DNA of 47,398 bases, taken from positions 1-47,398 of the IMG/VR virus record IMGVR_UViG_3300042387_002109; one strand, 5' to 3'. Both the position numbers and the translations under genes were made by a program. Numbering within the stretch: position 1 is the first letter of the stretch; every line of letters starts with the position of its first letter. The stretch comes from a virus. Positions 7,884-40,073 of this stretch are shown in pieces. A model generated the notes under the pieces. It was not told where the DNA came from, did no database searches, and worked only from the letters and a program-made list of their open reading frames with translations.

Positions 7884-8232
7884 AGGGTGTAAAGTACCTA
7901 AAGGATGGGGTGAAGAATTAATTATTGAAAATAATAATAAATACTGTGGTAAATTACTAATATTCAAAGCAGGCTGCAAATTCAGTATGCATTATCATAT
8001 GATTAAAGATGAAACCTGGTATGTTGATAAAGGAGAATTCACTTATAAATGGATTGACACGGAAACAGCAGATCTAATAGAACAACATCTCAAACCAGGA
8101 GATATAGTAAGACAAAGACCAGGACAACCCCATCAATTGATCGCATTAACCGACGGAGTTGTGTTTGAAATCTCAACACAACATTTTGATTCTGATTCAT
8201 ATCGTGTTTGGAAAGGAGATTCTCAAAAATAA
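7861..8232 (+). CDS. Cupin-domain protein (sugar-phosphate isomerase-like)
   Basis: A 123-residue single cupin. 'SMHYHMIKDETWYVDKGEF' matches cupin motif 1 (HxH...E...G) and 'PGQPHQLIAL' is motif 2 with the third metal His. Such cupins resemble the mannose-6-phosphate isomerase C-terminal domain and are frequent in polysaccharide loci as isomerases or epimerases. Met1 lies within the preceding gene (23 bp overlap). Residues EKPTVCEGCKV suggest an extra Cys pair at the N-terminus. The substrate is not identifiable. Confidence 0.75.
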   Translation: MEKPTVCEGCKVPKGWGEELIIENNNKYCGKLLIFKAGCKFSMHYHMIKDETWYVDKGEFTYKWIDTETADLIEQHLKPGDIVRQRPGQPHQLIALTDGVVFEISTQHFDSDSYRVWKGDSQK

Positions 8233-8236
8233 TAAT

Positions 8237-11731: not shown

Positions 11732-11733
11732 AC

Positions 11734-14802: not shown

Positions 14803-14804
14803 TT

Positions 14805-15341
14805 ATGAAATATTTTGACGAATTAAAACGATCAATGGATTGGCTTAATGAAAAGCCAGATACATTCTTTCTAGGACAAGCAGTAACATATGCTGGTACA
14901 GCTATGACTAACACAGTTAAAGATGTTAATCCATCTAAGATGATGGAAATGCCTGTAAATGAAGATATGCAGATGGGAATGACAATTGGAATGGCATTAA
15001 ATGGTACTGTTCCTATTTCAATTTACCCACGCTGGAACTTTCTATTATTGGCTGCTAATCAAGTAGTTAATCACTTAGATAAAATAAAAATAATGTCAGG
15101 TGGTGGATACACACCTAAAGTAATTATTAGAACATCAATTGGAGCACAACGCCCACTTCATCCACAACATCAACATATTGCTGATTTTACTGGGGGATTT
15201 AAGGCAATGTGTGATTGGGTTGATATAATTAGACTAGATGAACCACATCAAATATTTGAAGCATTTCAATATGCTTATGAAAGAACAGACAACCGCCCTA
15301 CTATTCTAGTTGAATGGGGTGATTATTATGGAGAAAAATAA
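14805..15341 (+). CDS. TPP-dependent enzyme, Pyr-domain subunit (E1-beta/transketolase-like)
   Basis: A 178-residue protein. 'EMPVNEDMQMGMTIGMALNG' contains the glutamate that protonates the TPP pyrimidine ring in E1-beta and transketolase enzymes, and 'ISIYPRWNFLLLAANQVV' is the helix at the subunit interface. It lacks the C-terminal third domain of normal E1-beta proteins (about 330 residues). With its 201-residue partner it therefore forms a minimal PP plus Pyr two-subunit enzyme. Substrate unknown; the next gene encodes a ColD-like dehydratase, suggesting joint work on a deoxysugar. Confidence 0.8.
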   Translation: MKYFDELKRSMDWLNEKPDTFFLGQAVTYAGTAMTNTVKDVNPSKMMEMPVNEDMQMGMTIGMALNGTVPISIYPRWNFLLLAANQVVNHLDKIKIMSGGGYTPKVIIRTSIGAQRPLHPQHQHIADFTGGFKAMCDWVDIIRLDEPHQIFEAFQYAYERTDNRPTILVEWGDYYGEK

Positions 15342-15348
15342 AAATAAA

Positions 15349-16530
15349 ATGAATAATTTCTATTTGCCTTTAATGAGCGATAATATTGATAAATCTGATA
15401 TAGAATCAGTTATTGATTTTCTTACCTCACATCCAATTCCAAAATTGACTAATGGTCCTAAAGTAGTTGAATTTGAAAATAAATGGGGAGAATGGTTAGG
15501 TACAAAATATAATATAATGGTTAATTCTGGAGCATCTGCTAATGAATTAACAATGTTGGCTCTAAAATATATCTATGGAGAAGGTGAAATTATAGTACCT
15601 CCACTAACCTGGATTTCAGACATATCCTCAGTATTATTTGCTGGTTTTGACCCTGTGTTTGTAGATATTAATTTAAAAAACTTATCATTTGATATTGATA
15701 AATTAAAAGCTGCAATTACACCTCAAACTAAAGCTATATTTCTTACTCACGTACTTGGTATTAATGGTTTAACAGATGAGTTAGTTAATATATGTGAAGA
15801 AAAAGGAATATTATTAATTGAAGATGTTTGTGAATCACATGGAGTAACTTTTAAAGGACAAAAAGTAGGATCAATTGGATTTGCTTCTAATTTTAGTTTC
15901 TTCTTTGCTCACCATATGTCAACAATTGAAGGTGGAATGGTTTGTACAGATAATGAATATTTCTATCAAGTATGTAGAGCACTTCGTTCTCATGGTATGA
16001 CTAGAGAAATGACAGATGATAATTTTAAACAACAAATCATTAATGAAAATCCTGATCTAAATAAAGACTTTATATTCCTTGCTCCCGCTCATAACTTTAG
16101 AAGTACTGAAATAAATGCTGTTATTGGATTATCTCAAATTGAAAAATTAGACACTAATAATAGTCGTAGAATAGATAACTTTAGTTATTTCATAGAAAAT
16201 TTAGATTCTAATAAGTATATTACTGATTTAGAAATGGAAGGACAATGTAATTATGCTTTCATAGTAATACTAAAAGAACCTTCATTTGAGTTAAGGGATA
16301 AAGTAGAAAAAACACTTAATGAAAAAGGAATTGAATTTAGAAGAGGATTATCTGGAGGAGGAAATCAATTAAGACAACCTTACTTTAAGAAAAATTATAA
16401 TATTAATTATGATGATTTTAAGAATGTAGATCACGTTCATCATTTTGGTTGGTATATTGGCAATTATCCTACATTGGAACAAGAAAAAATAGATACATTA
16501 CTTAATATCCTCAATAATGATATTTCCTGA
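15349..16530 (+). CDS. DegT-family PLP enzyme with His at the lysine position (ColD/RfbH-like 3-dehydratase)
   Basis: A 393-residue fold-type I PLP protein of the DegT/DnrJ/EryC1 family. 'VNSGASANEL' binds the cofactor phosphate, and 'LIEDVCESHG' holds the Asp that contacts the PLP ring nitrogen. In aminotransferases a lysine follows 'SF....', but here the segment is 'FFFAHHMSTIEGG', placing H188 at that site. That is the hallmark of the PMP-dependent dehydratases ColD and E1/RfbH, which remove the 3-hydroxyl of 4-keto-6-deoxy nucleotide sugars. Length fits ColD (about 390). ATG 15349 is chosen, 7 bp after the upstream stop; an in-frame ATG at 15328 would overlap it. Confidence 0.85.
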   Translation: MNNFYLPLMSDNIDKSDIESVIDFLTSHPIPKLTNGPKVVEFENKWGEWLGTKYNIMVNSGASANELTMLALKYIYGEGEIIVPPLTWISDISSVLFAGFDPVFVDINLKNLSFDIDKLKAAITPQTKAIFLTHVLGINGLTDELVNICEEKGILLIEDVCESHGVTFKGQKVGSIGFASNFSFFFAHHMSTIEGGMVCTDNEYFYQVCRALRSHGMTREMTDDNFKQQIINENPDLNKDFIFLAPAHNFRSTEINAVIGLSQIEKLDTNNSRRIDNFSYFIENLDSNKYITDLEMEGQCNYAFIVILKEPSFELRDKVEKTLNEKGIEFRRGLSGGGNQLRQPYFKKNYNINYDDFKNVDHVHHFGWYIGNYPTLEQEKIDTLLNILNNDIS

Positions 16531-17002
16531 AGTAAAAATATTCCAACCAGACTCATTTGAAGATTATAGAGGTGAATTATATACTGTATTCAATCAAGAC
16601 GAACACGAATTAATCTTTAATCATGATAAAGTAGCTGTTTCAAGACAACACGTATTGAGAGGAATTCATGGTGATGCTAAAGCAACTAAATTAATTACCT
16701 GTTTAAGTGGTGAAATATATCTTGTAGTTATAGATAATAGACCTGAGTCTCCAAATTATCTAAAATGGAATAGTATAATTCTAAATGAAAATAATAAAAG
16801 ACAAATATTAATACCTCCTGGATTTGGGAATGGACATTTAGTATTAAGTGAAAAAGCTGTATTCTTCTATAAATGGTCTTATAAAGGAGAATATCCTGAT
16901 GTTAAAGATCAATTTAGTCTAAATTGGAAAGACCCAAAAATTAACATACATTGGCCAATAGATAACCCTATACTTTCAGAACGAGATAAAAATTCACATT
17001 AA
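16517..17002 (+). CDS. RmlC-like dTDP-sugar 3,5-epimerase family cupin
   Basis: A 161-residue protein matching the RmlC group. 'QHVLRGIHGD' contains the catalytic His, 'KLITCLSGEIYLVVIDNRPE' is the core cupin sheet, and 'ILIPPGFGNGHLVLSE' is the conserved loop. 'WKDPKINIHWP' and 'LSERD' form the typical C-terminus. RmlC enzymes epimerise 4-keto nucleotide sugars at C3 and C5. The usual 'GFAHGF' is changed to 'GFGNGH', which may alter specificity. It overlaps the upstream gene by 14 bp and abuts the apt-like gene. Confidence 0.85.
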   Translation: MIFPEVKIFQPDSFEDYRGELYTVFNQDEHELIFNHDKVAVSRQHVLRGIHGDAKATKLITCLSGEIYLVVIDNRPESPNYLKWNSIILNENNKRQILIPPGFGNGHLVLSEKAVFFYKWSYKGEYPDVKDQFSLNWKDPKINIHWPIDNPILSERDKNSH

Positions 17003-17478
17003 TGAATTGGAAAGAATTTATTCATGAAGTACCTAATTTCCCCAAACCGGGAATATCATTTAAAGACATTTCACCCCTACTAAAATCAGTTAAATTCTCT
17101 GAAGCAATCTCAGAAATGAGAAAATTAGTTCCTAATCCACAATATTGGGTAGGAATTGATTCAAGAGGATTTATATTTGCTTCAGCATTAGCTAATACTT
17201 TTGGAGGTTTAGTTATGTGTAGGAAAAAAGGCAAATTACCTCCACCTACAATAAACCAAGAATATTCTTTAGAATACGGAACCGATACTCTAGAAATCCA
17301 ACCAGGTAATGGAACTGTAGTGATTGTAGATGATGTTTATGCTACTGGGGGGACAATGAATGCTGTTGAGCAGCTATGCCAAAAAGCAGGATATACTGTA
17401 ATAGGTAAGTTAGTATTAGTTGATTTACAATTTCTTCATGAACCTAATAATATTAAAAGTCTAATACAATATGAATAG
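17002..17478 (+). CDS. apt: Adenine phosphoribosyltransferase
   Basis: A 158-residue protein with the full Apt pattern. The N-terminal 'PNFPKPGISFKDISPLL' is the characteristic Apt start, 'GIDSRGFIFASALA' follows, and 'RKKGKLPPPTINQEYSLEYG' is the flexible loop. 'VVIVDDVYATGGTMNAV' is the PRPP-binding signature. It converts adenine plus PRPP to AMP. The adjacent gene encodes an MTA/SAH nucleosidase-like protein that would release adenine, and a PRPP synthetase lies at 38173-39024, so a complete salvage route is encoded in this window. Short but intact for the family. Confidence 0.92.
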   Translation: MNWKEFIHEVPNFPKPGISFKDISPLLKSVKFSEAISEMRKLVPNPQYWVGIDSRGFIFASALANTFGGLVMCRKKGKLPPPTINQEYSLEYGTDTLEIQPGNGTVVIVDDVYATGGTMNAVEQLCQKAGYTVIGKLVLVDLQFLHEPNNIKSLIQYE

Positions 17479-18052
17479 GAAAGTTTTCATAATTGCCATT
17501 GCAGATGAAATAGAAACCCAAGGCAATATCCTAGGATACCCAGTAATGTTTAGTGGAGTTGGTAAAATAAATGCTGCTACAACAGCAGTAATGGCTTTTA
17601 ATTTGGGTTATAATGAAGTAATTAATATTGGATCTTGTGGCTCATTAAAATTATCTGTTGGAGAAGTAGTTAAAATAGGACAAGTATTTCAAGATATTGA
17701 TGCCACTCCTTTATCTGAATATGGAGAAACACCATTTGAAGTTGCTAGTAAACAAATAATATTAGATACAAAGTCTTCTATTACTTGCTTCACTACAGAT
17801 TATTTTTATGATAAATCACAACAATCAAAGTATTCAAAATATTATTTGGATATGGTTGAAAGTAATAGTATATTTGATATGGAATGTTTTGCAATTGCTA
17901 AAGTATGTAAACGCTATGGGATTAAATTTAGTTCATATAAATGGATTTCTGATAGTGGTGAGCATAGTGATTGGAAAAAAAATTGTAAAATAGGATTTGA
18001 AAAAGTAAAAGTTATACTTAATGAGCAATTTGAAAAAGAAAGAATTCAGTAA
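17471..18052 (+). CDS. MTA/SAH nucleosidase-like (PNP/UDP phosphorylase family)
   Basis: A 193-residue protein of the nucleoside phosphorylase/nucleosidase family. 'FSGVGKINAATTAVMAFN' is the first signature, 'VINIGSCGSL' matches the N-[TI]-GS[AC]G strand, and 'QDIDATPLSEYGETPF' matches the 'D.D.T.FGY..G..P' segment of MTA/SAH nucleosidases. 'DMECFAIAKVC' carries the ribose-binding Glu, and 'WISDSGE' has the Asp that protonates the purine. It would release adenine from methylthioadenosine, SAH or 5'-deoxyadenosine. It overlaps apt by 8 bp. It is about 35 residues shorter than bacterial Pfs, so activity needs testing. Confidence 0.8.
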   Translation: MNRKVFIIAIADEIETQGNILGYPVMFSGVGKINAATTAVMAFNLGYNEVINIGSCGSLKLSVGEVVKIGQVFQDIDATPLSEYGETPFEVASKQIILDTKSSITCFTTDYFYDKSQQSKYSKYYLDMVESNSIFDMECFAIAKVCKRYGIKFSSYKWISDSGEHSDWKKNCKIGFEKVKVILNEQFEKERIQ

Positions 18053-18806
18053 TTTTAAAGTATTAGTTATTGGAGACACATGTTATGATGAATTTATATA
18101 TGGTACTGCTGTTAGATTAGCCCCTGAAGCTCCGGTACCTGTATTTAATCCTATTAATACAACTCTCAATAAAGGAATGGCAGGGAATGTAGTAGAAAAT
18201 TTACAAGCATTAAATACTCAAACATACTTTATAAAAAACCCAGAACCAACACCAATTAAAACACGTTATGTTGATGAAAGATCAGGACAGTTATTATTAC
18301 GTGTAGATGCAAACGATAAAGTAGAAAGAATAAATGAAAATACTTTAAAATATATCACTAATAACAAATATAAAGGAGTAACAATGGATGCTATTATAAT
18401 TAGTGATTATGATAAGGGATTTTTAGAAGAAGAAGATATTGATTTTATTTGTAAAAATAATTTCAATGTGTTTATAGATACTAAAAAAATATTAGGTGGA
18501 TGGTGTAAAAATGCATCTTTTATTAAAATTAACCATGTTGAATATCAACGCACAGAATATACAATTCAAGAATTAGGTATTAAAGATAAAATGATTATTA
18601 CTTTATCAAGTAAAGGATGTCAACATAAAGATAAAGTATATCCTGTTGAAAAAGTACAAATTAGAGACGTATCAGGAGCCGGAGATACTTTTTTGTCTGG
18701 GCTAGTATCTGAATTTATATTAACTAAAGATATAGAAAAAGCAATTAGATTTGCTCAACAATGTGCCACAATAGTAGTTCAAAAACCAGGAGTATCAACA
18801 ATATGA
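18021..18806 (+). CDS. PfkB-family sugar kinase, HldE N-terminal/HldA-like
   Basis: A 261-residue ribokinase-fold protein. 'VIGDTCYDEFIYGTAVRLAP' followed by 'EAPVPVF' is the hallmark start of RfaE/HldE heptose-7-phosphate kinases. 'KGMAGNVVENLQAL' is the substrate-binding glycine pair and 'DVSGAGDTFLSGL' contains the GAGD catalytic motif. It probably phosphorylates C1 of a sugar phosphate; a cytidylyltransferase of HldE C-terminal type is encoded at 7482-7883. At 261 residues it is shorter than HldA (about 320). It overlaps the nucleosidase gene by 32 bp and the methyltransferase gene by ATGA. Confidence 0.85.
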   Translation: MSNLKKKEFSNFKVLVIGDTCYDEFIYGTAVRLAPEAPVPVFNPINTTLNKGMAGNVVENLQALNTQTYFIKNPEPTPIKTRYVDERSGQLLLRVDANDKVERINENTLKYITNNKYKGVTMDAIIISDYDKGFLEEEDIDFICKNNFNVFIDTKKILGGWCKNASFIKINHVEYQRTEYTIQELGIKDKMIITLSSKGCQHKDKVYPVEKVQIRDVSGAGDTFLSGLVSEFILTKDIEKAIRFAQQCATIVVQKPGVSTI

Positions 18807-20479
18807 GTAATTATTTTGTAAAGCAAGTAGGAAATATAGTATCTGATACAAAAATAGATACTAATATATTTGAATTTAGACATGAAAAATTCAATGAAGT
18901 AATCCCAGAAGGGTCTATTGTATTAGATATTGGAGCACATGCTGGAGGGTTCAGCCTAATGTTTGGTAGTTGTACAGGTGAAAAAGGTAAAATACTAGCA
19001 TTTGAGCCAAATCCAAAAACATTTGAAAGTTTAAAATATAAGGCCGATAATAATCCTCAATTTAATATTATTCCTTATAATTATGCGTGCACGAATAAAA
19101 AAGGTAAATTTATTTTTAATTATTCAGATCCAAGTTTTGGTGTAGGAATGAATGGTGGTTTTTTTGATTCTTTAAAGTTGGGAAATCAAATAAAACAATT
19201 TCATAACCATCAAATTGAAGTAGATGGCGTTAATATATTAGATTTTTTAAATGAAAATCACAGTAATGAACTTGATAAAATAAAATTTATCAAAACAGAT
19301 ACTGAAGGGTTTGATAAGGAAGTATTAAAAACTCTTTCCCCACTTATTAAAAAGAATAGACCTGTATTAATGGTTGAAGCTTTTAGAGATTTAACTAAAG
19401 AAGAAATATTAGATTTTTGGAATGTACTTAAATCATTTAATTATGAAATTTATGATGTTTCACCTTTAGATAATAAGACAGACTGTACAGGTCCTTTAAC
19501 ATTAGAAGAATTTGAATATTACATTTATAAAGTAGTTGATAATGGTAATTTCTTCTGCTTCCATAAAGATGAAGTAGTTAATTATAATTTACCAACTACA
19601 ATACCTGGTAAAACAGCAGTTGTTGTATTCGGTAGAAATGATGGTTATAAAGAAAAAGAACGTTTTGCTATTCATTTAACTACAATGTTAGAAACATTTG
19701 ATGAAGTAATTTATGTAGATTGGAATTCATCAACTCATAGCTTCCTATATGAAGTATTAGATATGATACCTAAAACAGGCAAACTAAAACACTTCGCAAT
19801 TCCCCCAGAATATGCTAAATTAATGTCTAATAATGATGATAAAGCTCAAATATGTAATAGTGTTTTATCATTTAATTTAGGATTAAGAAGAACAAATGCT
19901 GAATGGATTGTATTATCAACTACAGATATAATCCCGCCAACTAAAGAAACATTACAAAAATTTATTTCACAAGCTAATAAACATTCTTTTTATACTTTTA
20001 GTAGGAGAGATATTGAATATAATGATGTGATTGCTAATTTAGATAAATTAGATGAATATAGAAAAGAATTAGATAAAACAACGGAACCTCGTTATCTTCC
20101 AACAGCAGTAACCCCTAATGATAGATATAGTATTTTCAATTGCTGTGGAGACTTTCAACTAGCTACTAAAAACATTTGGTATAAAATGAGAGGATATGAA
20201 GAACCAATGCTATATGCTTGTTTTGTAGATACTAACGCTCAAAAGAAATCAGTATTATATGGTTTTGATTTAGTTCCTATATATGATATTCCGTTATATC
20301 ATATGAGTCATAAAGGAATGGGAAATGATGGTTCATCACCTTCAAAACAATATTACAATGATGCTATGCAGTGGGTAGAATATTTTGATAAACGTGAAGA
20401 ATTAGGTCACATTTTATATTCTTATAATGCTGATACTTGGGGATACTCTAACGTAGATATTGAATTTGAAGTATTTTAA
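18803..20479 (+). CDS. FkbM-family methyltransferase fused to a GT2-like domain
   Basis: A 558-residue two-domain protein. Residues 1 to about 240 form a SAM-dependent FkbM methyltransferase: 'VLDIGAHAGGFSLMFG' is motif I, 'ILAFEPNPKTFESLK' carries the acidic residue that binds SAM ribose, and 'FIKTDTEGFDKEVLKTL' is the FkbM-specific block. Residues from about 270 on start 'GKTAVVVFGRNDGYKEKERF', include 'EWIVLSTTDIIPP' and end with 'PLYHMSHKGMG', resembling a nucleotide-sugar transferase domain. The fusion suggests O-methylation linked to sugar transfer on one glycan. ATG 18803 overlaps the upstream stop. Last gene of the cluster. Confidence 0.75.
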   Translation: MSNYFVKQVGNIVSDTKIDTNIFEFRHEKFNEVIPEGSIVLDIGAHAGGFSLMFGSCTGEKGKILAFEPNPKTFESLKYKADNNPQFNIIPYNYACTNKKGKFIFNYSDPSFGVGMNGGFFDSLKLGNQIKQFHNHQIEVDGVNILDFLNENHSNELDKIKFIKTDTEGFDKEVLKTLSPLIKKNRPVLMVEAFRDLTKEEILDFWNVLKSFNYEIYDVSPLDNKTDCTGPLTLEEFEYYIYKVVDNGNFFCFHKDEVVNYNLPTTIPGKTAVVVFGRNDGYKEKERFAIHLTTMLETFDEVIYVDWNSSTHSFLYEVLDMIPKTGKLKHFAIPPEYAKLMSNNDDKAQICNSVLSFNLGLRRTNAEWIVLSTTDIIPPTKETLQKFISQANKHSFYTFSRRDIEYNDVIANLDKLDEYRKELDKTTEPRYLPTAVTPNDRYSIFNCCGDFQLATKNIWYKMRGYEEPMLYACFVDTNAQKKSVLYGFDLVPIYDIPLYHMSHKGMGNDGSSPSKQYYNDAMQWVEYFDKREELGHILYSYNADTWGYSNVDIEFEVF

Positions 20480-25623: not shown

Positions 25624-26009
25624 GGGGATAACATGGTATCGATTTGGATGTTGAGGTGATACTACATGCAGGCGTTTGGTAGAGTCGCCTTAGAAAACTG
25701 CAAACAATAACTGACGAAATGTCAACTATGACCTTCAACGACCTTATGGCGTTTGTAGGCGCCGACTACGCTTTAGCAGCCTAGTCCGCACTCGGGTGTG
25801 AGTAACCTAGGAACAGAAGACCACCGAGCGCTCACAATCGACTCGCTAAATAAGGACTGTGGATTAGTTTTCTTGATAGTCATAAAATCAAGTGGTGGAA
25901 ACGACCATAACGGTCAGCCCTACTGATCAGACTTGTTCAGATCTAAGCATGTGAGACGTTAGTATTATTGTCTCTTTCAAAGACGTGGGTTCGAATCCCA
26001 CTATCTCCA
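25624..26009 (+). ncRNA. ssrA: Transfer-messenger RNA (tmRNA)
   Basis: The 5' GGGGATA pairs with the 3' TATCTCC (26002-26008, one G-U pair) and the T arm GTGGG-TTCGAAT-CCCAC precedes it, forming the tRNA-like domain. 'GGTATCGAT' near the 5' end matches the usual tmRNA start. GGCG/CGCC at about 25671-25689 fits pseudoknot 1. A tag frame ends GAC TAC GCT TTA GCA GCC TAG at 25784, giving DYALAA. The likely resume codon is GAC at 25713, after ATAACT, giving a 23-residue encoded tag that begins DEMSTM. tmRNA frees stalled ribosomes. A phage copy with its own tag is unusual. CCA is not encoded. Confidence 0.93.
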
Positions 26010-26020
26010 CTAATCTATTT

Positions 26021-26069: not shown

Positions 26070-26546
26070 ATGAAACTATTTCTAACAACTATATTAATAT
26101 TCCTGTCTAGTTTATTAAAGGCCCAACCAGTATCTGTATACGTTGGTAATGTGACTAACAAAGTTAAAATAGGTTCACTTACTGGTAATAAAAATCTTGC
26201 ATTTGGTGTTAAGAATATAGTTGAAGAAGCAATACTTGATAAAGGATATGATTTAAATAATAATAGTAGTGCTTTTAAATTAGATCTTGAAATAATTTAT
26301 TTCGATATTCAACAAACATCAACTGGTATAAGTGTATTTCATAAAACAGAAAACGAAACAATAATTCGAATAAAAGGTATTCTTTATACAGATGCTAAAA
26401 AACCTAAAGAATACATTGCAATAGGAAAGTCCTCCGAAATCTCAACATCAACAATGATTATCGATGAAGGTGGTGGTTTTAATCAAGCTTCGGCCCGTTC
26501 TGCATTAAAAAAAACCATTATTAATTTAATTGAAAATTTACTATGA
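26070..26546 (+). CDS. Secreted periplasmic/outer-membrane-associated protein
   Basis: A 158-residue protein with an N-terminal signal peptide (MKLFLTTILIFLSSLLKAQ). The mature part looks like a small alpha/beta domain: VSVYVGNVTNK, then 'NLAFGVKNIVEEAILDKGY', then a long strand pair. That layout is reminiscent of the CsgG/YajG-type fold, where a nucleotide-binding-like sheet is followed by 'A....L...G' helices. I cannot assign a function. ATG 26070 is chosen because it starts the signal peptide; the longer frame overlaps tmRNA. It is the first gene of the envelope cassette and overlaps the next by ATGA. Confidence 0.65.
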   Translation: MKLFLTTILIFLSSLLKAQPVSVYVGNVTNKVKIGSLTGNKNLAFGVKNIVEEAILDKGYDLNNNSSAFKLDLEIIYFDIQQTSTGISVFHKTENETIIRIKGILYTDAKKPKEYIAIGKSSEISTSTMIIDEGGGFNQASARSALKKTIINLIENLL

Positions 26547-28444
26547 AAAAAGTATTATTAGTCATAGCACTTTTAATCAGTTATGTAACAACATTTGCTC
26601 AAACACCTCAAATTGGACATTTCCAAACCTTAACTACTGTTAGAAGAGGTGATACATTAGATGTTACCTGGTTTTACCGTCCGGGTGCTGCCGATGTTCG
26701 CACATTTCAGGTTGACTGGCAGTATAAAAAGACATTATTAACCCATATTTCCACTACAGTTGACGCTTCAGTAAATGGAATGACTCCTGCTGTAAGTTAT
26801 AAGACCTGGGATAATTACAAATACGGTAGTTATTCAAATGGTACTTATAATTACACATCTAATTCAGAGTGGACTATAGGCCGTAACTATTTAGTATTAT
26901 CGAGTGGTTCAACTATTGGATCTAGTGGATATATTATTCACAATAAGTATAAGATTAACTCTGTATCACCAAACTATGTTTCAGATACAATTACTGTAAA
27001 CTGGGCTCGTATGTTTGACGTTAACGGTACTACAATTGGTGATAATGTAGCTCAACTTACAAATCAAAAATTAGCAATTAAACTATTAGGTAACTTAACA
27101 TTATCAGGTAAAGTATGGTTAGGTCCAAGTATGACTTTAAGACCAACAGTATGGTGTTATAAAGCAAGTAATAATGCCTTTATTGATTCCGTAACTGTAA
27201 ACGCTGATGGTAGTTATGTTTTAGATAACGTTGATGAAAATACAAAGTATAAACTAGATGTTAGATTCCCAGCTCCACTTACCGCTATTAGAGATAATGC
27301 CGTAACAATAGCAGATGCTGTTAAGACATATGACGAATACACGGTTACAGATGTTAACCAAACATTTAGTAGAACTTATTTAAAAAATGGCTTAGCTTAT
27401 CTAATTGCTGATATCAATAAGACAGGTACATTAGATGGTGGTGATGCTTATAGTATTTATGCTTCAGTATCTGGCCTGAAACCAATTGATACAGCTAAAT
27501 TAATTAATGTATTTACCAAAAGTGTTTATGACTCATTAGCAATAGGTACTAATCAATGGAATGATTGGGCATCTTATATCAATGGAGTAACATATGTTTT
27601 TGATAGTGTAGGTACAGGTAACCTAACAGGAGTAGACATTAAATACTTTATATTAGGTGATGTTGATAGAACCCACTCTTCTCCAGTATATGATGCGGGT
27701 GGTGCTTTAGTAGCTGCTGCTAAGTATATTGGAACACTTGATGTTAATATTCCAAATGTAACTGCTCCAACAGGTCAAGCAATGTATGCTAATTTCAATA
27801 TGAATACCAATGGTATTAAAAATGACGGCTTACAGTTTGAAATGAAATATGATCCTGCTAAGGTTAAATTTGAAGAAATTATTTCAAATATTCAAGGACC
27901 ATGGTTACAATATCTAACACATGATGAAACAAATGGTATTATCCGTTTTGGAGGAATGAATAATCAAATTTTAGGATCATTAACAGGTAATGTTACTCCG
28001 TTTAAACTTAAATTCTCTCCAATCGGAAATAATGATATTCAAACAAATGTTTATGTTAGACGCTTAATGGATGCTAGTGATAGAAATGGAGATCATTTTA
28101 ATATTAATTTAGCATCAGATTATATAGTATTATCTTCAAGAGCTAACCCGGGATATGTATTGCCTTCACCTGAAAAGGAAATTACAGCTATGATTCGTCC
28201 AAACCCAACTAGTGGTTTTTTTGAGTTAGTAGTAATGTTCCCTAGATCAAATATGAACTCATTAGCTAGAGTTTATGATACTCAAGGACGTTTAATTAAA
28301 GAAATAGGTAAAGTATCTAGTACTGAATACTATACAACTGTAGTTAAGCAAGTAGATTTAACAGCTGCTATAAATGGTAACTATTTATTAGTATTAGATA
28401 ATGGAAACCAGAAACGTTTAACAAAACAATTTATTAAAATTTAA
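26543..28444 (+). CDS. Secreted multidomain protein with type IX secretion C-terminal domain
   Basis: A 633-residue protein. A signal peptide (MKKVLLVIALLISYVTTFAQ) is followed by beta-rich domains, a dockerin/EF-hand-like loop at residues 290-301 (DINKTGTLDGGD) and a cohesin-like segment near 390-545. Residues from about 550 to 633 form a typical T9SS type-A sorting domain: 'IRPNPTSGFFELVV', 'VYDTQGRLIKEIGK', 'VDLTAAINGNYLLVL' and a final 'KQFIKI'. Such domains direct export by the Bacteroidota Por machinery and anchorage at the surface. A phage gene with this signal implies use of the host's T9SS. ATGA overlap with the upstream gene. Confidence 0.8.
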   Translation: MKKVLLVIALLISYVTTFAQTPQIGHFQTLTTVRRGDTLDVTWFYRPGAADVRTFQVDWQYKKTLLTHISTTVDASVNGMTPAVSYKTWDNYKYGSYSNGTYNYTSNSEWTIGRNYLVLSSGSTIGSSGYIIHNKYKINSVSPNYVSDTITVNWARMFDVNGTTIGDNVAQLTNQKLAIKLLGNLTLSGKVWLGPSMTLRPTVWCYKASNNAFIDSVTVNADGSYVLDNVDENTKYKLDVRFPAPLTAIRDNAVTIADAVKTYDEYTVTDVNQTFSRTYLKNGLAYLIADINKTGTLDGGDAYSIYASVSGLKPIDTAKLINVFTKSVYDSLAIGTNQWNDWASYINGVTYVFDSVGTGNLTGVDIKYFILGDVDRTHSSPVYDAGGALVAAAKYIGTLDVNIPNVTAPTGQAMYANFNMNTNGIKNDGLQFEMKYDPAKVKFEEIISNIQGPWLQYLTHDETNGIIRFGGMNNQILGSLTGNVTPFKLKFSPIGNNDIQTNVYVRRLMDASDRNGDHFNINLASDYIVLSSRANPGYVLPSPEKEITAMIRPNPTSGFFELVVMFPRSNMNSLARVYDTQGRLIKEIGKVSSTEYYTTVVKQVDLTAAINGNYLLVLDNGNQKRLTKQFIKI

Positions 28445-28448
28445 CAAT

Positions 28449-28763
28449 ATGTCAGAAGAATTAGAAAACTCAAATGATGGTACTTTGTCTGGATTAAAAA
28501 AGACCATTATCGGTGTAGTAACAACCGCAGTTATGGGATTAGGAACTTGGGGAGTAACCCAAATAACAGGTGGCAATGACGAACCAGCTCCAGTTCAACA
28601 AGCAGCTCCAATAATTAATATCCAAAACACTCAAACACAGCAACAATCAGCAGGTAGTGGAAAAACTGTAATTATTAGAGAAAAAGAAACTATCAAAGAA
28701 ACAGCACCAAAACCTAAAAAGAAAGAGGGTGATCAATTTAAAGAAAAAGAACCTCTGTGGTAA
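28449..28763 (+). CDS. Single-pass membrane protein with charged tail
   Basis: A 104-residue protein. A membrane segment lies at about residues 16-41 (LKKTIIGVVTTAVMGLGTWG). It is followed by a Gln/Pro-rich stretch and a Lys/Glu/Pro-rich C-terminus (ETAPKPKKKEGDQFKEKE). It lacks a signal peptidase site and lipobox, so it is probably an inner-membrane protein with a long periplasmic or cytoplasmic tail. A spanin-like or assembly role is possible but unproven. Confidence 0.6.
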   Translation: MSEELENSNDGTLSGLKKTIIGVVTTAVMGLGTWGVTQITGGNDEPAPVQQAAPIINIQNTQTQQQSAGSGKTVIIREKETIKETAPKPKKKEGDQFKEKEPLW

Positions 28764-28782: not shown

Positions 28783-29355
28783 ATGCAACAACCAACAGGA
28801 TTTAAAGAATTATTAAATGCAATGATGCGCCGTAGATGGTTTATCACTGCTATTGTATTAGGTGGTTTTATGATCATCATATTAGGTATATTTGCTGCTA
28901 TAGTAGGTAAAACTGAAATAGGTGGTGAATGGAAAGAATTATTATTGTTATTGTTAGGTGCCTTCATAGGTAGTTATGGCAAAATAATCGATTACTGGTT
29001 CAGTGATACAGATAAAGATAAAATGTTAGTTCAAAAAATGGATGAGGAAGATGGTACTAGCATGTCTCATACAAATGACATGAAAGAATCAAACAAACCA
29101 ATCACACCATTAATTCCAGATGCTTTCATTACGGCTGCTGCTCACGCACATCAAACTAATATGGTTGAACTTGATATGAAAAAAGATCAACAAGAACACG
29201 ATCAAATGATGTCTAAGGATCAACAAGAGCACGAGCAAGAAATGGAAAAATTAGAATTTGAATTTCAATCTCATAGACAATGTGAGCATGAGTGGGGTGA
29301 TAGTGATTATGATGGTGAATTAGAATGCCAAAAATGTGGTAAAATAAAAGATTAA
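28783..29355 (+). CDS. Two-pass membrane protein with coiled coil and zinc-knuckle tail
   Basis: A 190-residue protein. Two hydrophobic helices (about residues 18-43, FITAIVLGGFMIIILGIFAA; and 50-68, LLLLLLGAFIGSYG) are followed by a Gln/Glu/His-rich coiled coil with a near repeat (DQQEHDQMMS, DQQEHEQEME). A C-terminal 'CEHEWGDSD....CQKCGK' has C/H ligands for one zinc. The topology resembles proteins of phage lysis or envelope modules, but I cannot name a family. Confidence 0.65.
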   Translation: MQQPTGFKELLNAMMRRRWFITAIVLGGFMIIILGIFAAIVGKTEIGGEWKELLLLLLGAFIGSYGKIIDYWFSDTDKDKMLVQKMDEEDGTSMSHTNDMKESNKPITPLIPDAFITAAAHAHQTNMVELDMKKDQQEHDQMMSKDQQEHEQEMEKLEFEFQSHRQCEHEWGDSDYDGELECQKCGKIKD

Positions 29356-29376: not shown

Positions 29377-29619
29377 ATGAAACAATTCCTAAAACATCTA
29401 TTTGATGACAGTAACACAATCAATGAAAAATCAGTTGTAGGATTTACTGCATTTGTAATGATGGTAGTAACATTATTAGCTGATATTGTAACTGGTGTAA
29501 TGGGTAAAACAATGCCTATCCATGAGTTTGTATTTGATGGATTTATGGTTATTGTATTAGGTGCCTTTGGTATTGCCTCTGTGGATAAGTTTATAAATAA
29601 AAGAAAAGGTAATGATTAA
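29377..29619 (+). CDS. Small two-pass membrane protein, holin-like
   Basis: An 80-residue protein with two hydrophobic helices (FTAFVMMVVTLLADIVTGVM and FDGFMVIVLGAFGIASV) and a basic C-terminal tail (DKFINKRKGND), the size and topology of small phage holins. 'NEKSVVGFTAF' and 'FGIASVDKFINKRK' recall proteins annotated as holin in marine myophages, from memory. No endolysin gene is recognised nearby, so a lysis role is uncertain. It overlaps the CsgG-like gene by 8 bp. Confidence 0.6.
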   Translation: MKQFLKHLFDDSNTINEKSVVGFTAFVMMVVTLLADIVTGVMGKTMPIHEFVFDGFMVIVLGAFGIASVDKFINKRKGND

Positions 29620-30367
29620 ATATAAAGCTCAAATAAAATCTTTATTAATTGTTATTGTTTGGTTTGCAATAATGTTTTTTATTGCTACTAAAAGTATTGG
29701 TCAAACAATAGGAACAACAAAAACAGAAGACTATAAAGCATCATTTGAGAAAAAATCAAACATTGATAGCTTACTTGAATATGATGGTCCTAAAATCCCT
29801 ATTCAGATACTTAGCTTAGGCATCAGTGAAGAGGTTTATGCTATGTATCCTGAACTAAAGGATAAGCGTGTTGGGTTAGGTGTAACTAATATTGTAGTTG
29901 AATTCTTAGAAGAGACTAACCATTTTACTTTTACTGAAGATAAAACTGAGATTAAAAATAGAATGGTTAAGCAGTTTCAAGCATCACAATCTGGAATTAC
30001 TCAAGATAAGTTAGATGGTAAAGGTAAAATACGTTTAGCTCATTACTTTGCTTATATTGAATGCTATGATTTCTCAGTTTCAGAAGATGAAACAGTAAAC
30101 ATGAAAGATGGAGTTAAAAACACAGTTATAACTCGCTTAGGTTTACAAGTTAAATTCGTTAATGCTGAAACTGGAGAGTACTTTACTGGTTCTGGTTTAG
30201 GTGAAGCTAAGACAGTTAGAGAATTAACATTAATGAATGATGATAACTTTTCGGAGGTTAAATTTAATCAATCAACAATAGGTACTTCAACTAAAAAAGC
30301 ACTTGAAATAGTAGCTGGTAAAATACTACTTCGTATGCATAAAAAAGGCATATTTAAAATGCAATAA
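29612..30367 (+). CDS. CsgG-family outer-membrane/curli-transport-like protein
   Basis: A 251-residue protein. An N-terminal hydrophobic signal (residues 9-28) lacks a lipobox Cys. Then 'RVGLGVTNIVVEFLEETNHF' and 'KNRMVKQFQASQSGI' match the CsgG pattern 'G....ia....l......F.vveR..l..ll.Eq..s.sG'. 'LAHYFAYIECYDF' resembles the 'AdYll.G.i..f' strand, and 'VKFVNAETGEYF' the later one. CsgG forms the outer-membrane pore for curli export; distant phage homologues of unknown role occur in T4-like phages. Here it sits within a cassette of exported proteins. Confidence 0.7.
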   Translation: MIKYKAQIKSLLIVIVWFAIMFFIATKSIGQTIGTTKTEDYKASFEKKSNIDSLLEYDGPKIPIQILSLGISEEVYAMYPELKDKRVGLGVTNIVVEFLEETNHFTFTEDKTEIKNRMVKQFQASQSGITQDKLDGKGKIRLAHYFAYIECYDFSVSEDETVNMKDGVKNTVITRLGLQVKFVNAETGEYFTGSGLGEAKTVRELTLMNDDNFSEVKFNQSTIGTSTKKALEIVAGKILLRMHKKGIFKMQ

Positions 30368-30398: not shown

Positions 30399-31904
30399 TT
30401 GAGAAAATTAAAAACATATCTAAGTGTGTTACTTATCATTTGTCTCAGTTGGAAAGCTGAGGCACAGACACTTACTTACTCATTTACTGATCCTTGTACT
30501 AAAGCAATAACTTTATTCTCAATTCCTGCTACAGGTACAGTAATATATTTCCAAGGACAATCAAAATCATTTACATCAGCAGATATTCAAAACGGTACAT
30601 TTGCCTCTTGGATAAATCAAGTTTATACTAACTACCGTAAAATAGCTCCTTGTGGACAACAGCAAGGACAAGTAACTCAAAACCAAATCACATCACAGAT
30701 TATAAGCAACACAGTTCAAAGTGTTGTTAGTAGTATTATGAGTCAAGCTCAATCAGCAGCCTCTAGTACTATTACGGGTGTTGCTACATCATCATCAACT
30801 GCTAATGCTTCATTAGCTGGAGGGGACGATGCTGCTAGTAAAAATAATAAGAATAATGATTCAAAACAAAAGAAAAAAGGAAATAATAATACAAATACAA
30901 ATAACCAAAATAATACATCAAGCTCAAGTAACTCTAATAACACTAACGGAAATACTCAAAACAACAGTACGTCAAGCTCAAACAGCTCTAACAATACTGG
31001 TGAAAACACTCAAAACAATAATACATCAAGTTCAAATAGCTCTAATAACAATGGAGGGAACAGCAGTAGTGGGAGTACTAGCAATACTAGTACTGGACAA
31101 ACTACTAATCAAACCAATACTAGAACTGAACAAAAAGGTAAGGAAGTAGTGTCTACAGTTACAATGAATATAGATCAACAAAATCAAAACAGTTCTAAAG
31201 ACGATAATAGCAGTAGTGGAGGAGGTAAAAGTAAAAACGGTAAAAGCGGATCAACTAACCCTCTAATAGTATCATCTGATTTCACAACAGCTCAAAATCT
31301 AGATAAATCATTTACTCCAATCCTTAACTTAAGTATGTCCCAATCATCAATGACAGGAATGTCAAGTTGGGGTTTAACATCAATGATATGGTTTAATTTT
31401 AAGCAGTTTGCCCTATCAGGTAAGTATACAAAGATTAGTTTTAGTAAAGATGGTAAATTAAAATGGATACATAATGTTAATTTAACTGGTGTTTATTCGT
31501 ATGGTAATATAATCGGATTTTTAGGTTATAGTGGAATATTAAATGCTGGAAAGTGGGGTGTAACTGGATTTAATGTAAGTGGAGCTATGACATTAGTAAC
31601 TGGGGAGGAAAAAAATACATTCCTATCACCTTCAATAACAGCATTTTATACTAAACCATTTAAAGGTAATAAACGTTTAACTATATCTCCTGAGTTGTAT
31701 CTTATCTCATCACCACTAATATACTCAACCAAAGAAAAAGTAACAACAACAGACAGAACATTCAGTGCATTTATAGGCAGTGGATTTGACTACCAAATAA
31801 CAAGACGTTTTAAGTTAAATATAAATTATAAGGCAAATTTGTCTACTAACCCAGAATTTCCTATATTATCGTTCTTCCTAATAGGTAGTAAGATTAATTT
31901 ATGA
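30399..31904 (+). CDS. Outer-membrane beta-barrel protein with Asn/Ser/Thr-rich linker
   Basis: A 501-residue protein. A signal peptide (MRKLKTYLSVLLIICLSWKA) is followed by a small domain with one Cys pair. A low-complexity linker rich in Asn, Ser, Thr and Gln covers residues 145-295. The C-terminal 200 residues have regular amphipathic strands (WGLTSMIWFNFKQFALSGKY, WIHNVNLTGVYSYG), as in an outer-membrane barrel. The start is TTG at 30399: the frame has no upstream ATG and the signal peptide begins there. It overlaps the lectin gene by 4 bp. It could display the linker outside the cell or serve as a surface receptor mask. Confidence 0.65.
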   Translation: MRKLKTYLSVLLIICLSWKAEAQTLTYSFTDPCTKAITLFSIPATGTVIYFQGQSKSFTSADIQNGTFASWINQVYTNYRKIAPCGQQQGQVTQNQITSQIISNTVQSVVSSIMSQAQSAASSTITGVATSSSTANASLAGGDDAASKNNKNNDSKQKKKGNNNTNTNNQNNTSSSSNSNNTNGNTQNNSTSSSNSSNNTGENTQNNNTSSSNSSNNNGGNSSSGSTSNTSTGQTTNQTNTRTEQKGKEVVSTVTMNIDQQNQNSSKDDNSSSGGGKSKNGKSGSTNPLIVSSDFTTAQNLDKSFTPILNLSMSQSSMTGMSSWGLTSMIWFNFKQFALSGKYTKISFSKDGKLKWIHNVNLTGVYSYGNIIGFLGYSGILNAGKWGVTGFNVSGAMTLVTGEEKNTFLSPSITAFYTKPFKGNKRLTISPELYLISSPLIYSTKEKVTTTDRTFSAFIGSGFDYQITRRFKLNINYKANLSTNPEFPILSFFLIGSKINL

Positions 31905-33331
31905 GGCTATTACTAATCATATTATTATTCCCCTTTATGCTGTTTGGACAGTCAATTACTGCTCCACCTGGTAGAACTTATCAAGTAAGTGTTAGTGGAC
32001 AAGATGCAAGTGGATTTGTGATTAGTGGGTTTGGATCAGAAACATTATTAACATCAATTAGTTTAGTTAATCCACCATCAGGTACAACATTTAACATAAC
32101 CACAACAACAGGCCTAACTGCAGCAAGTGGATTTACTTTAACTGGAAATAAAACTCGTTTAGTATTTACAGGAACCATTGCTAATGTTAATAATGCATTA
32201 GCATCTTTAAAAGTTAATACGGGCTCTGTACTAGGAAATATTCAAATATCTGTAGCTACAACTGTTAACCCAGCAGGATTTTTCTATAATGGTGTAAATG
32301 GACACTTTTATAGACCAATATCTGCTGGTAACACATACACTGGTGCTAGAGCAGCAGCCTTAACAACAACATTCAAAGGTCAGCAAGGATACTTAGTAAC
32401 AATCACTTCAGCAGATGAAGATGCGTTTATTTTTAATAATGTTCCACAATCTCAAATATGGTTTGCATTAACTGATGAAGTATCTGAAGGTCAATGGAGG
32501 ATTGATGCAGGGCCTGAAAAGGGAACTTTAATCAAAACATCAAACGGACAATTTGCAGGAAATATATCTGGACAATACAATAACTGGGCGCCTGGTGAAC
32601 CTAATAACAGCGGAAACGAAGATTATGCAGTAACGAAGTGGAATGGTTCTCAATGGAATGATTTACCAAATAACTTTAGTTGCCCTTATGTAATTGAATA
32701 TGGAACCTGGACTAATCCAGCTGATGCTACATTTACTGATTTCTATACAGCTAATACTATTAATACAGTAGCAATTACAAATATATTAACAGGTACAGTT
32801 ACAATCCCTGGAGGATTAAGTTCAAGACCATTACTTACACTCTATAGAGTAGTAAATGGAGTTGATCAACTTGTAGACTATAAAACAGTAGCTGTGAACG
32901 GTACTTATACCTTTACTTTACCGAATCAAAATTCAACCTACAAATTAGTACCATCATTAACAACACAAGGTATAACATCAGCTGATTTTGATTTAGTATG
33001 GGGTGAGATACAAAATGAAAGTACACCACCTATTACTGCTCAAGGTTTAGTAATGACTGGAACTAAGCAGTGGAAAGCAGCTGATATAAATGAAAATGGA
33101 ATATTGGATCTAGGCGATACCTATCTAATAGCAGCTCATAACTCAGGGTACAGACCAATAACTAAAGTATTATGGTTCAATCCAACTAATTATGATAATA
33201 TCACTAGATTAAATTTCAATACTATTAACCCAGTAACATCGTTTACTTTAAACGTAGTAACATCAGATATAACTCAAAATATTAAATACTGTATATTAGG
33301 GGATATTAATTTATCTCATTCAAGCCAGTAA
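31901..33331 (+). CDS. Secreted C-type lectin-domain protein, lacking the sorting domain of its paralogue
   Basis: A 476-residue protein with a signal peptide (MRLLLIILLFPFMLFGQ) and a cadherin-like N-terminal region. A C-type lectin domain spans about residues 130-268: 'GYLVTITSADEDAFIF', 'NNWAPGEPNN' with the EPN sugar-binding motif at 233-235, and WND at 252-254. A dockerin-like loop 'DINENGILDLGD' follows. The end, 'YCILGDINLSHSSQ', matches 'YFILGDVDRTHSS' in the T9SS cargo at 26543-28444, where 250 more residues follow. This protein therefore stops exactly where its paralogue continues toward the sorting domain. Confidence 0.75.
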   Translation: MRLLLIILLFPFMLFGQSITAPPGRTYQVSVSGQDASGFVISGFGSETLLTSISLVNPPSGTTFNITTTTGLTAASGFTLTGNKTRLVFTGTIANVNNALASLKVNTGSVLGNIQISVATTVNPAGFFYNGVNGHFYRPISAGNTYTGARAAALTTTFKGQQGYLVTITSADEDAFIFNNVPQSQIWFALTDEVSEGQWRIDAGPEKGTLIKTSNGQFAGNISGQYNNWAPGEPNNSGNEDYAVTKWNGSQWNDLPNNFSCPYVIEYGTWTNPADATFTDFYTANTINTVAITNILTGTVTIPGGLSSRPLLTLYRVVNGVDQLVDYKTVAVNGTYTFTLPNQNSTYKLVPSLTTQGITSADFDLVWGEIQNESTPPITAQGLVMTGTKQWKAADINENGILDLGDTYLIAAHNSGYRPITKVLWFNPTNYDNITRLNFNTINPVTSFTLNVVTSDITQNIKYCILGDINLSHSSQ

Positions 33332-39228: not shown

Positions 39229-39426
39229 ATGAATAAATACGAAGCATTAGGAGACAATTATTTCGGATTTGAATTATTTGAAGAAGTATTTAAAGTAATT
39301 AATGAACGTGGCTACTCACATGATGATAACATGTTTAAAGCAGGTGTAGCAAGCGCTGAAGCTGCTGTAAGGCGTTTAAGAGAAGAATATTATGAAGCCA
39401 TATCTAAATCAGTAATGGATATGTAG
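39229..39426 (+). CDS. Hypothetical small protein
   Basis: A 65-residue helical protein with a conserved-looking 'GVASAEAAVRRLREEYYEAI' C-terminus. No motif recognised. It ends 14 bp before the nuclease gene. Confidence 0.5.
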   Translation: MNKYEALGDNYFGFELFEEVFKVINERGYSHDDNMFKAGVASAEAAVRRLREEYYEAISKSVMDM

Positions 39427-39440
39427 TGATATTTATAGGT

Positions 39441-40073
39441 ATGAAATACCTATTATCACTCCTTCTATTAATTAGTTTTACTGTTTCAGCTCAAGATACA
39501 GTTACTATTACTCACAAAGCGTACAAAACAACTTATAGCAAATCCAAACATTACCCTGTCAAGGTTGAATGGTGGATAAGTAGAGCATCTATTACGTGTG
39601 ATGTTAAAGCAAAACGTGGAGATAAATTTATACCTGATCCTAAATTAGCTGCTGAAACTAATTTACAATCAGACTATACAGGTCAAGGATTTGATCGTGG
39701 GCATAACTTCCCAGCAGCAGACGCATCATGTGATCAAGTAATAAATGATGAGTCATTTTACTTCAGTAATATGACAGCTCAATACCCAGCACTCAATCGT
39801 GGTGATTGGAAAACATTAGAGGAAATGACACGCACCGAGGCTAAATTATATGACTCAGTTTATGTTTGGTGTGGTTCAGTAGGCGAAGTTAAGAAAATAG
39901 GTAAAGTATCAGTACCAAAGCAATGTTGGAAAGTATTATATACTAAACGTTTAAACACATATAGCGCATTTCTATTCGACAACAATACTACTAAAGCAGA
40001 TGGAGTTAAAAATAATGAAGTACCTTTAGAATTAGTCGAACAAATTTCTGGATTTAAATTTAAAGTTAAGTAA
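39441..40073 (+). CDS. Secreted DNA/RNA non-specific endonuclease (NUC1 family)
   Basis: A 210-residue protein with a signal peptide (MKYLLSLLLLISFTVSAQ, cleavage after about residue 17). 'GFDRGHNFPAAD' contains the DRGH active site (H88 as general base), and 'YFSNMTAQYPALNRGDWKTL' has the Asn ligands for Mg2+. The family (NucA, Serratia nuclease, EndoG) degrades DNA and RNA. Export to the periplasm means it cannot digest cytoplasmic host DNA directly; it may break down incoming rival DNA or released nucleic acid. ATG 39441 starts the signal peptide. Confidence 0.92.
   Translation: MKYLLSLLLLISFTVSAQDTVTITHKAYKTTYSKSKHYPVKVEWWISRASITCDVKAKRGDKFIPDPKLAAETNLQSDYTGQGFDRGHNFPAADASCDQVINDESFYFSNMTAQYPALNRGDWKTLEEMTRTEAKLYDSVYVWCGSVGEVKKIGKVSVPKQCWKVLYTKRLNTYSAFLFDNNTTKADGVKNNEVPLELVEQISGFKFKVK

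What the first reader, a model, noticed from the sequence alone, without database searches (positions are those of the whole stretch)
26543..28444. Phage gene encoding a type IX secretion cargo protein
A signal peptide plus an 80-residue C-terminal domain with the NPTSG, VYDxxG and final KI pattern of T9SS sorting domains. It implies that the phage uses the host Por system to put a protein on or outside the infected cell, a strategy I do not recall being described for phages.
Basis: partly seen in the sequence, partly recalled or inferred. Interest (0 to 1): 0.8.

Follow-up and report, generated by a model that had tools for sequence, protein, structure and literature searches.

The report
Phage surface module using host secretion
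A large family of viruses of Bacteroidota bacteria carries a conserved set of genes for exported proteins, one of which bears the host's own type IX secretion address tag, so the virus probably dresses the surface of the infected cell with a sugar-binding protein complex.

Summary
ORF 26543-28444 (633 aa) has a Sec signal peptide and a C-terminal domain (CTD) above the curated PF18962 and TIGR04183 cut-offs. A CTD alignment finds solved T9SS CTDs. 79 of 80 homologous viral ORFs keep it, the exception cut by a contig end. But phage-encoded T9SS cargo is already in print (PMC7468147).

What looks new is the context. The protein has two cohesin-like domains and is one part of a conserved phage module of exported proteins: a CsgG-like protein, a probable outer-membrane barrel, a C-type lectin and membrane proteins. 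Lectin and cargo share a dockerin-like part. In the isolated Flavobacterium phage immuto the cargo is split in two genes, and the module lies far from structural genes. Sampling by the CsgG-like gene, 82 of 109 loci have the CTD on the cohesin protein. In 25 it lacks the CTD and a lipoprotein gene lies downstream (23 directly adjacent, one family). None has both, but few evolutionary switches underlie this. I read it as a phage-built surface scaffold displaying a lectin, probably to exclude other phages or hold cells together. Nothing was tested at the bench.

The parts
26543..28444 (+). T9SS cargo gene (T9), 633 aa: signal peptide, cohesin-like 1, CarboxypepD_reg-like/dockerin-like middle, cohesin-like 2, type A CTD
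26543..26599 (+). Sec signal peptide, residues 1-19, predicted cut before Q20
   Evidence: sequence pattern; 80 of 80 homologous ORFs fit; no trained predictor available
26612..27088 (+). cohesin-like domain 1 (residues about 24-182); most constrained part, median dN/dS 0.07 over 15 unsaturated pairs
   Evidence: beta-rich in the model, read from sequence; the structural comparison barely tested it
27098..27682 (+). part shared with the lectin gene (residues 186-380): CarboxypepD_reg-like plus dockerin-like
   Evidence: hhalign to lectin residues 295-475, probability 99.1, E 1.5e-18
27410..27445 (+). dockerin-like calcium loop 1 (DINKTGTLDGGD)
   Evidence: motif recalled; D290, D298, G300, D301 invariant; low model confidence here
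27659..27694 (+). second loop-like stretch (DVDRTHSSPVYD)
   Evidence: G372, D373, H378, S379, S380, P381 invariant; low model confidence
27731..28147 (+). cohesin-like domain 2 (residues 397-535)
   Evidence: VIA-align Z 15.7 to 1aoh_A, 133 aligned, 2.1 A; PF00963 in 14 of 22 members, not in the window's own protein at E<=0.1
28199..28441 (+). T9SS type A C-terminal domain
   Evidence: PF18962, TIGR04183; PDB CTDs
26070..26546 (+). gene B, exported protein with signal peptide, distant relative of F; overlaps the start of T9 by 4 bases
   Evidence: in 81 of 81 loci; hhalign to F probability 92.3, E 5.4e-7; weak PF03923 in 9 of 25 and TraT in 6 of 25 members
28449..28763 (+). gene C, one transmembrane helix with a charged tail
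   Evidence: in 79 of 81 loci; weak Rz-like spanin hit E 0.018
28783..29355 (+). gene D, two hydrophobic stretches and a cysteine-rich end, holin-like by eye
   Evidence: in 66 of 81 loci; no family match beyond weak hits
29377..29619 (+). gene E, two hydrophobic stretches, small membrane protein
   Evidence: relatives in 45 of 81 loci, often at another place
29612..30367 (+). gene F, exported CsgG-like protein
   Evidence: AlphaFold2 pLDDT 72.6, pTM 0.65; Foldseek rows 1-19 all CsgG or curli complex, best E 1.1e-7; VIA-align Z 12.3 to 4uv2_O, 153 aligned, 3.4 A
30399..31904 (+). gene G, exported; DPCT N-terminal part, low-complexity linker, C-terminal half that I take for an outer-membrane barrel (by eye)
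   Evidence: in 74 of 81 loci; no convincing Pfam family in 25 members
31901..33331 (+). gene H, exported C-type lectin ending in a dockerin-like tail (GDINLSHSSQ)
   Evidence: PF00059 in 20 of 20 members; shared part
39426..40073 (+). nuclease-like gene with signal peptide; an annotated endonuclease with signal peptide lies next to the module in phage immuto; membership in the module unsure
   Evidence: phrog_14168 E 4.7e-19; signal peptide by rule; relatives in 8 of 81 T9-sampled loci

Best explanation
The gene encodes a phage protein that the infected Bacteroidota host exports by Sec and then by its own T9SS (type A CTD), so that a cohesin-bearing scaffold is displayed on the cell surface. 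It works with the genes beside it, which form one exported module. A C-type lectin (H) with a dockerin-like end is held by the scaffold, and the CsgG-like protein (F), its relative (B) and the probable barrel (G) form an outer-membrane pore or assembly site. Most likely the displayed lectin covers or remodels surface glycans during infection, to keep other phages off (superinfection exclusion) or to hold neighbouring cells close. Shown by computation: CTD, signal-peptide pattern, cohesin fold of domain 2, CsgG-like fold, lectin domain, shared part of lectin and cargo, synteny. Inferred: actual T9SS export, cohesin-dockerin binding, the pore role of F, B and G, and the purpose.
For: CTD over curated cut-offs and matched to solved T9SS CTDs; signal-peptide pattern in 80 of 80 and CTD in 79 of 80 homologous ORFs. 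Purifying selection on the CTD, median dN/dS 0.27 over 19 unsaturated of 21 pairs. Cohesin fold Z 15.7. Synteny: B in 81, C in 79, F in 76, G in 74 of 81 loci; sampled from F, the cohesin protein is near in 108 of 109 loci. H and T9 share a 180-residue part. In immuto the cargo is two genes, one ending in GDVNGTGLN and one with cohesin plus CTD; such a fission or fusion suggests that the halves work together. Anchor swap: 82 of 109 loci have the CTD on the cohesin protein; 25 have lipoprotein genes instead, 23 of them of one family with a gap of -4 to 13 bases behind the cohesin gene; none has both. Signal peptides concentrate in the module, 5 of 8 genes against 2 of 75 elsewhere. In immuto the module is far from structural genes and the host is a Flavobacterium.
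Against: No export, binding or phenotype was measured. The dockerin call is weak: PF00404 in 4 of 20 lectins, best E 0.0073, none listed for the cargo, and the model is of low confidence there (whole model pLDDT 63.4). 32 of 66 F-sampled lectins do not end in the GD..N tail. The window scores only 0.8 bits over the PF18962 cut-off. Genes C, D, E could be lysis proteins, and immuto has an annotated endo-beta-N-acetylglucosaminidase 5.7 kb behind the module. The lipoprotein swap rests on few events (2 changes on a quick tree). L239 has an in-frame stop between cohesin and CTD. The host of the window phage is unknown.
Confidence: 0.65

Rival explanations
1. The module is an egress or lysis device: a CsgG-like pore, a barrel and membrane proteins C-E open the envelope late in infection, and the T9SS cargo and lectin loosen the surface layer.
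For: Phage CsgGF in Melnitz was proposed to regulate lysis, and that phage also has a tmRNA (PMC9004378, passages); the window has a tmRNA right upstream. C has a weak Rz-like spanin hit; D and E look holin-like by eye. Immuto has an annotated endo-beta-N-acetylglucosaminidase at 22.1 kb, 5.7 kb behind the module.
Against: The genes that the immuto record calls chitinase, holin and lysozyme lie at 43.7, 44.3 and 146 kb, the module at 10.5-16.4 kb behind replication genes. Immuto's module lacks D and E. A surface-anchored cohesin and a lectin are not obviously needed for lysis.
Confidence: 0.18
2. The cargo and lectin are virion-associated adhesins with host-like sorting domains and no use of T9SS.
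For: Phage tails often carry lectin-like and Ig-like folds (recalled); crAss-like phage proteins with T9SS domains lie upstream of the head genes (PMC6949934, passages).
Against: Signal peptides on T9, B, F, G and H would take them out of the cytoplasm, where virions assemble. The module is far from head and tail genes in immuto, and in record G001 the sheath match is at 86 kb and the cargo CTD at 159 kb.
Confidence: 0.07
3. Host-benefit cargo: an acquired surface adhesin or carbohydrate-binding protein that changes host attachment or nutrition, much as proposed for Cryophage.
For: Bellas et al. proposed that Cryophage cargo lets the host secrete variable enzymes or virulence factors (PMC7468147, passages).
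Against: Here the protein is conserved (54-85% identity to 21 aligned homologues), found once per record and tied to a set of neighbours, unlike the variable Cryophage cargo. No homologue came from 84,980 species genomes with the two peptide patterns used, so a bacterial source was not seen.
Confidence: 0.1

Closest known systems
Phage-encoded T9SS cargo of Cryophage (Bellas et al. 2020, PMC7468147, passages)
   Same: phage genes with T9SS type A sorting domains, proposed to use the host system
   Different: those are three variable genes (endoglucanase, GH39, PA14); here one conserved cohesin scaffold within an exported module
T9SS sorting-domain proteins near BACON proteins in crAss-like phages (de Jonge et al. 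2019, PMC6949934, passages)
   Same: T9SS domains in phage proteins
   Different: upstream of the head genes and, in one case, joined to a BACON protein; no CsgG, lectin or cohesin module in the passages read
Curli (CsgG/CsgF) operon of pelagimyophages and Melnitz (PMC7029224, PMC9004378, passages)
   Same: phage operon with a CsgG pore and no recognised CsgA/CsgB; tmRNA in Melnitz too; sibling capture or lysis proposed
   Different: hosts are SAR11 and OM43 (Proteobacteria); no T9SS domain, cohesin or lectin named in the passages read; tblastn with F at E<=1 hit only the four immuto records among 50,697 phage records
Cohesin-dockerin parts of cellulosomes
   Same: cohesin fold and dockerin-like tails
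   Different: no enzymes in the module; the lectin is the likely partner; binding untested
Flavobacterium phage immuto genes 13-19
   Same: the same module: lectin, cohesin/dockerin half, cohesin/CTD half, C, F, G, B
   Different: cargo split into two genes, other gene order, no D or E; B found by profile only (no tblastn match)

Membership tests
T9SS type A cargo | Sec signal peptide | tested here: met
   pattern in window and 80 of 80 homologous ORFs; no trained predictor
T9SS type A cargo | C-terminal domain over the curated PF18962 and TIGR04183 cut-offs | tested here: met
   27.8 against 27 and 26.4 against 23 bits
T9SS type A cargo | seven-stranded beta-sandwich CTD with a lysine near the C-terminal end | tested here: met
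   seven strands in 548-632; end KQFIKI; feature from PMC11285876 (passages); sheet order not compared
T9SS type A cargo | secretion depends on the host T9SS (PorV shuttle) | not testable with these tools
   needs a Flavobacterium with and without porV or gldNO
Cohesin | PF00963 match or cohesin fold | tested here: met
   fold Z 15.7 for residues 398-533; PF00963 in 14 of 22 members, not the window itself at E<=0.1
Dockerin type I | two calcium loops, PF00404 match | tested here: inconclusive
   PF00404 in 4 of 20 lectins, best E 0.0073; none listed for T9
CsgG (gene F) | CsgG fold | tested here: met
CsgG (gene F) | Pfam CsgG sequence match | tested here: not met
   none of 25 members lists a CsgG family at E<=0.1; so CsgG-like only
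CsgG (gene F) | lipoprotein signal and ring of nine | tested here: inconclusive
   signal ends in (A/S/G)Q with no lipobox seen; oligomer not testable
Curli system | CsgA/CsgB amyloid subunits and CsgF | tested here: inconclusive
   none listed by Pfam for the module genes scanned
C-type lectin (gene H) | PF00059 | tested here: met
   20 of 20 members at E<=0.1; window 31.4 against 22.6 bits

The most novel reading that the evidence does not exclude
Phages of Bacteroidota build a multi-protein machine in the envelope of the infected cell: a CsgG-like outer-membrane pore plus a cohesin scaffold that is sent to the surface by the host T9SS (or, in related phages, goes with a lipoprotein anchor instead) and that holds a dockerin-tagged lectin: a cellulosome-style display used for superinfection exclusion or sibling capture.
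Probability: 0.35. Interest if true: 0.88.

Novelty: new variant of a known kind. Interest (0 to 1): 0.72.

Why it matters
If true, a widespread group of phages, including contigs over 300 kb, uses a host secretion system with one dedicated, conserved cargo and assembles a surface complex during infection. That would make phage use of T9SS testable in an isolated phage-host pair (immuto and Flavobacterium sp. LMO8), give a setting to phage CsgG-like genes of unknown purpose, and offer a natural anchor swap (T9SS tail against lipoprotein) as an experiment already done by evolution.

Tried and rejected
Host gene carried by chance: set aside, since 58 IMG/VR loci and 213 of 247 stretches encode relatives while the genome-contig scan with two peptide patterns found none among 38 candidates.

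Lysis cassette: kept as a rival. PorP/SprF shuttle for gene G: no Pfam support in 25 members. Annotated phage curli genes as relatives of F, G, H, C, B: tblastn hit only immuto, and nothing for B. Other CTD types: NCBIfam type C matched 4 of 22 members weakly (best E 0.0077), type B none listed. Papers with phage, cohesin, dockerin and 'viral genomes' together: none; immuto: four listings, none read. FLiP-2 and phage Larrie papers name T9SS only for hosts in the passages seen. Enzyme or toxin domain in the cargo: none in Pfam. PHROGs has no family for the cargo (best E 0.084). The H counts include matches to the cargo itself because of the shared part; I used instead.

Limits of counts: T9-sampled and F-sampled loci overlap in contigs and hold near-copies; the scans are pattern-based and capped at 80 loci. 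51 of 160 F loci with under 5 kb on a side were dropped before the 109 count. Of the 109, L239 (in-frame stop between cohesin and CTD) and L221 fit neither class. The CTD cases L265-267, L273 and L274 were missed by my own profile and added from PF18962. L152 and L153 are near-copies with two lipoprotein genes of another kind, behind a second lectin-like gene rather than behind the first cohesin gene. In L158 my CTD profile hit the lipoprotein itself (17.1 bits). Of 68 complete T9-sampled lectins 65 end in the GD..N-type tail; of 66 F-sampled ones 34 do, and 13 of the 15 exceptions shown are immuto-like. An earlier count gave 117-136 aa for the lipoproteins and 24 loci; the checked figures are 117-130 aa and 23.

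Full report
The observation. The window is a virus record of 47,398 bases. ORF 26543-28444 encodes 633 aa. It begins with a Bacteroidota-like Sec signal peptide and ends in a domain that passes the curated cut-offs of PF18962 (27.8 against 27 bits) and TIGR04183 (26.4 against 23 bits). These scores are modest, so I tested the family. Of 22 aligned members PF18962 matches 22 and TIGR04183 18 at E<=0.1. An alignment of 16 CTDs finds solved T9SS-type chains: 8glk_D, titled Endonuclease I (E 1.2e-5), 5jvk_A (uncharacterized, 5.5e-6), Mirolase 8qb1 (0.006), Gingipain R2 5hfs (0.036). It also lists chains that must be chance, such as Thin (3.8e-5) and ribosomal S4, so the list is noisy. The model shows seven strands in the CTD, as reported for T9SS CTDs (PMC11285876, passages).

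Conservation. One IMG/VR scan gave 58 loci; a profile scan gave 213 stretches with relatives, 80 kept. Of 80 homologous ORFs (81 loci searched) 80 fit a signal-peptide pattern and 79 carry the CTD; L137 is cut by its contig end. Among seven close relatives median dN/dS over unsaturated pairs is 0.07 for cohesin 1, 0.16 for cohesin 2, 0.20 for the middle, 0.20 for the signal peptide and 0.27 for the CTD: the CTD is the least constrained part but still under purifying selection. In 59 of 59 virus records with a PF18962 match over the cut-off it is the only one over it. G018 was below the cut-off, and one search was aimed at records thought to lack the CTD, 16 of whose 48 had no match at all.

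What the cargo is. Residues 398-533 have the cohesin fold (VIA-align Z 15.7 to 1aoh_A, 133 aligned, 2.1 A; PF00963 in 14 of 22 members). Residues 24-182 look like another cohesin but were barely tested. Residues 186-380 are homologous to residues 295-475 of the lectin gene H (hhalign probability 99.1, E 1.5e-18). This shared part holds a loop of dockerin type (DINKTGTLDGGD, motif recalled) and a GD(V/I)(D/N)..HSS stretch at which the lectin ends. By profile the dockerin call is weak, and the model is poor there.

The module. In 81 loci the neighbours recur: B in 81, C in 79, D in 66, E in 45, F in 76, G in 74; some loci are cut by contig ends. F folds like CsgG (Foldseek rows 1-19, best E 1.1e-7; VIA-align Z 12.3), although Pfam sees no CsgG in 25 members. 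H has a C-type lectin domain in 20 of 20 members. Five of eight module genes have a strong signal peptide against two of 75 others in the window (Fisher p 4e-5; home-made rule, module chosen beforehand for its conservation). Sampling by F instead, the cohesin protein is near in 108 of 109 loci with 5 kb on both sides.

The isolated relative. Among 50,697 phage records only the four immuto records of Flavobacterium sp. LMO8 matched the cargo, F, G, H or C. There the cargo is split: immuto_14 has signal peptide, a cohesin-like part and a dockerin-like end (GDVNGTGLN); immuto_15 has signal peptide, cohesin and CTD. The module lies at 10.5-16.4 kb behind replication genes; baseplate, tail and head genes lie between about 82 and 154 kb; chitinase and holin lie at 44 kb and lysozyme at 146 kb, but an annotated endo-beta-N-acetylglucosaminidase lies at 22 kb. 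Relatives reach 321 kb; of 16 records searched 12 have a tail-sheath match, 9 of them over the cut-off, and the window has none. So at least those nine are contractile-tailed phages.

Anchor swap. Of the 109 F loci, 77 have the CTD on the cohesin ORF by my profile and 5 more by PF18962. In 23 the cohesin ORF stops 5-9 residues after the cohesin and a 117-130 aa lipoprotein gene follows at -4 to 13 bases; its domain resembles the CTD (hhalign probability 90.2, E 1.5e-6; PF18962 below cut-off or silent). L152 and L153 have two other lipoprotein genes further on. None has both a CTD on the cohesin ORF and a lipoprotein of this family. On a quick tree of F this needs only 2 changes, so it is few events, but it fits a need for the cohesin at the outer surface by one of two anchors. 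That the lipoproteins face outward is inference from acidic residues after the cysteine.

Mechanism and purpose. I infer Sec export, T9SS passage of the cargo by its type A CTD, display of the scaffold, capture of the lectin, and F, B and G at the outer membrane. The window and immuto also carry sugar-modifying genes (window 3-17 kb: glycosyltransferases, epimerase, aminotransferase; immuto 49-60 kb), which fits surface remodelling. Superinfection exclusion is my first guess, sibling capture (proposed for pelagimyophage curli, PMC7029224, passages) the second; the sequence does not decide between them.

Known or new. Phage T9SS cargo is in print as a prediction (PMC7468147, passages; PMC6949934, passages), and so are phage CsgGF modules (PMC9004378, PMC7029224, passages). 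I found no paper that joins T9SS cargo, cohesin and CsgG-like genes in phages in ten searches of the open library; most subscription papers are not held there, and I judged most hits by their listings.

Noticed in passing
window 25624-26012: Phage-encoded tmRNA (RF00023, 72.2 bits) right upstream of the module; Melnitz also has a tmRNA and CsgG genes.
   Followed up: partly
window 3012-20479: Glycosyltransferases, nucleotide-sugar epimerase, DegT aminotransferase and FkbM methyltransferase, and by eye a radical-SAM-like protein at 12669-14216; immuto has a similar glycan island at 49-60 kb.
   Followed up: partly
window 39426-40073: Signal-peptide nuclease-like protein; an annotated endonuclease with signal peptide (immuto_12) sits next to the module in immuto. 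Could degrade incoming or environmental DNA.
   Followed up: partly
L182:8338-8700, L163:8341-8703, L186:6905-7261 and 20 more loci: Small lipoproteins with a T9SS-CTD-like domain directly behind a cohesin gene that lacks the CTD.
   Followed up: yes
L152:3472-5778, 5775-6505: Second lectin protein that itself ends in a cohesin-like part, followed by two other lipoprotein genes: another arrangement of the same parts.
   Followed up: no
L239:7916-8677: In-frame stop between the cohesin and the CTD of the cargo; broken gene, assembly error or real split not decided.
   Followed up: no
L220 and L221 (genome contigs): Contigs in a Bacteroidetes and an Ignavibacteriales metagenome bin encode F; the first carries the cohesin protein with CTD and may be a misbinned phage or a provirus.
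   Followed up: no
window 26070-26546: Gene B family weakly matches TraT, the plasmid surface-exclusion protein, in 6 of 25 members (best E 0.014): a lead towards exclusion, not a test.
   Followed up: no
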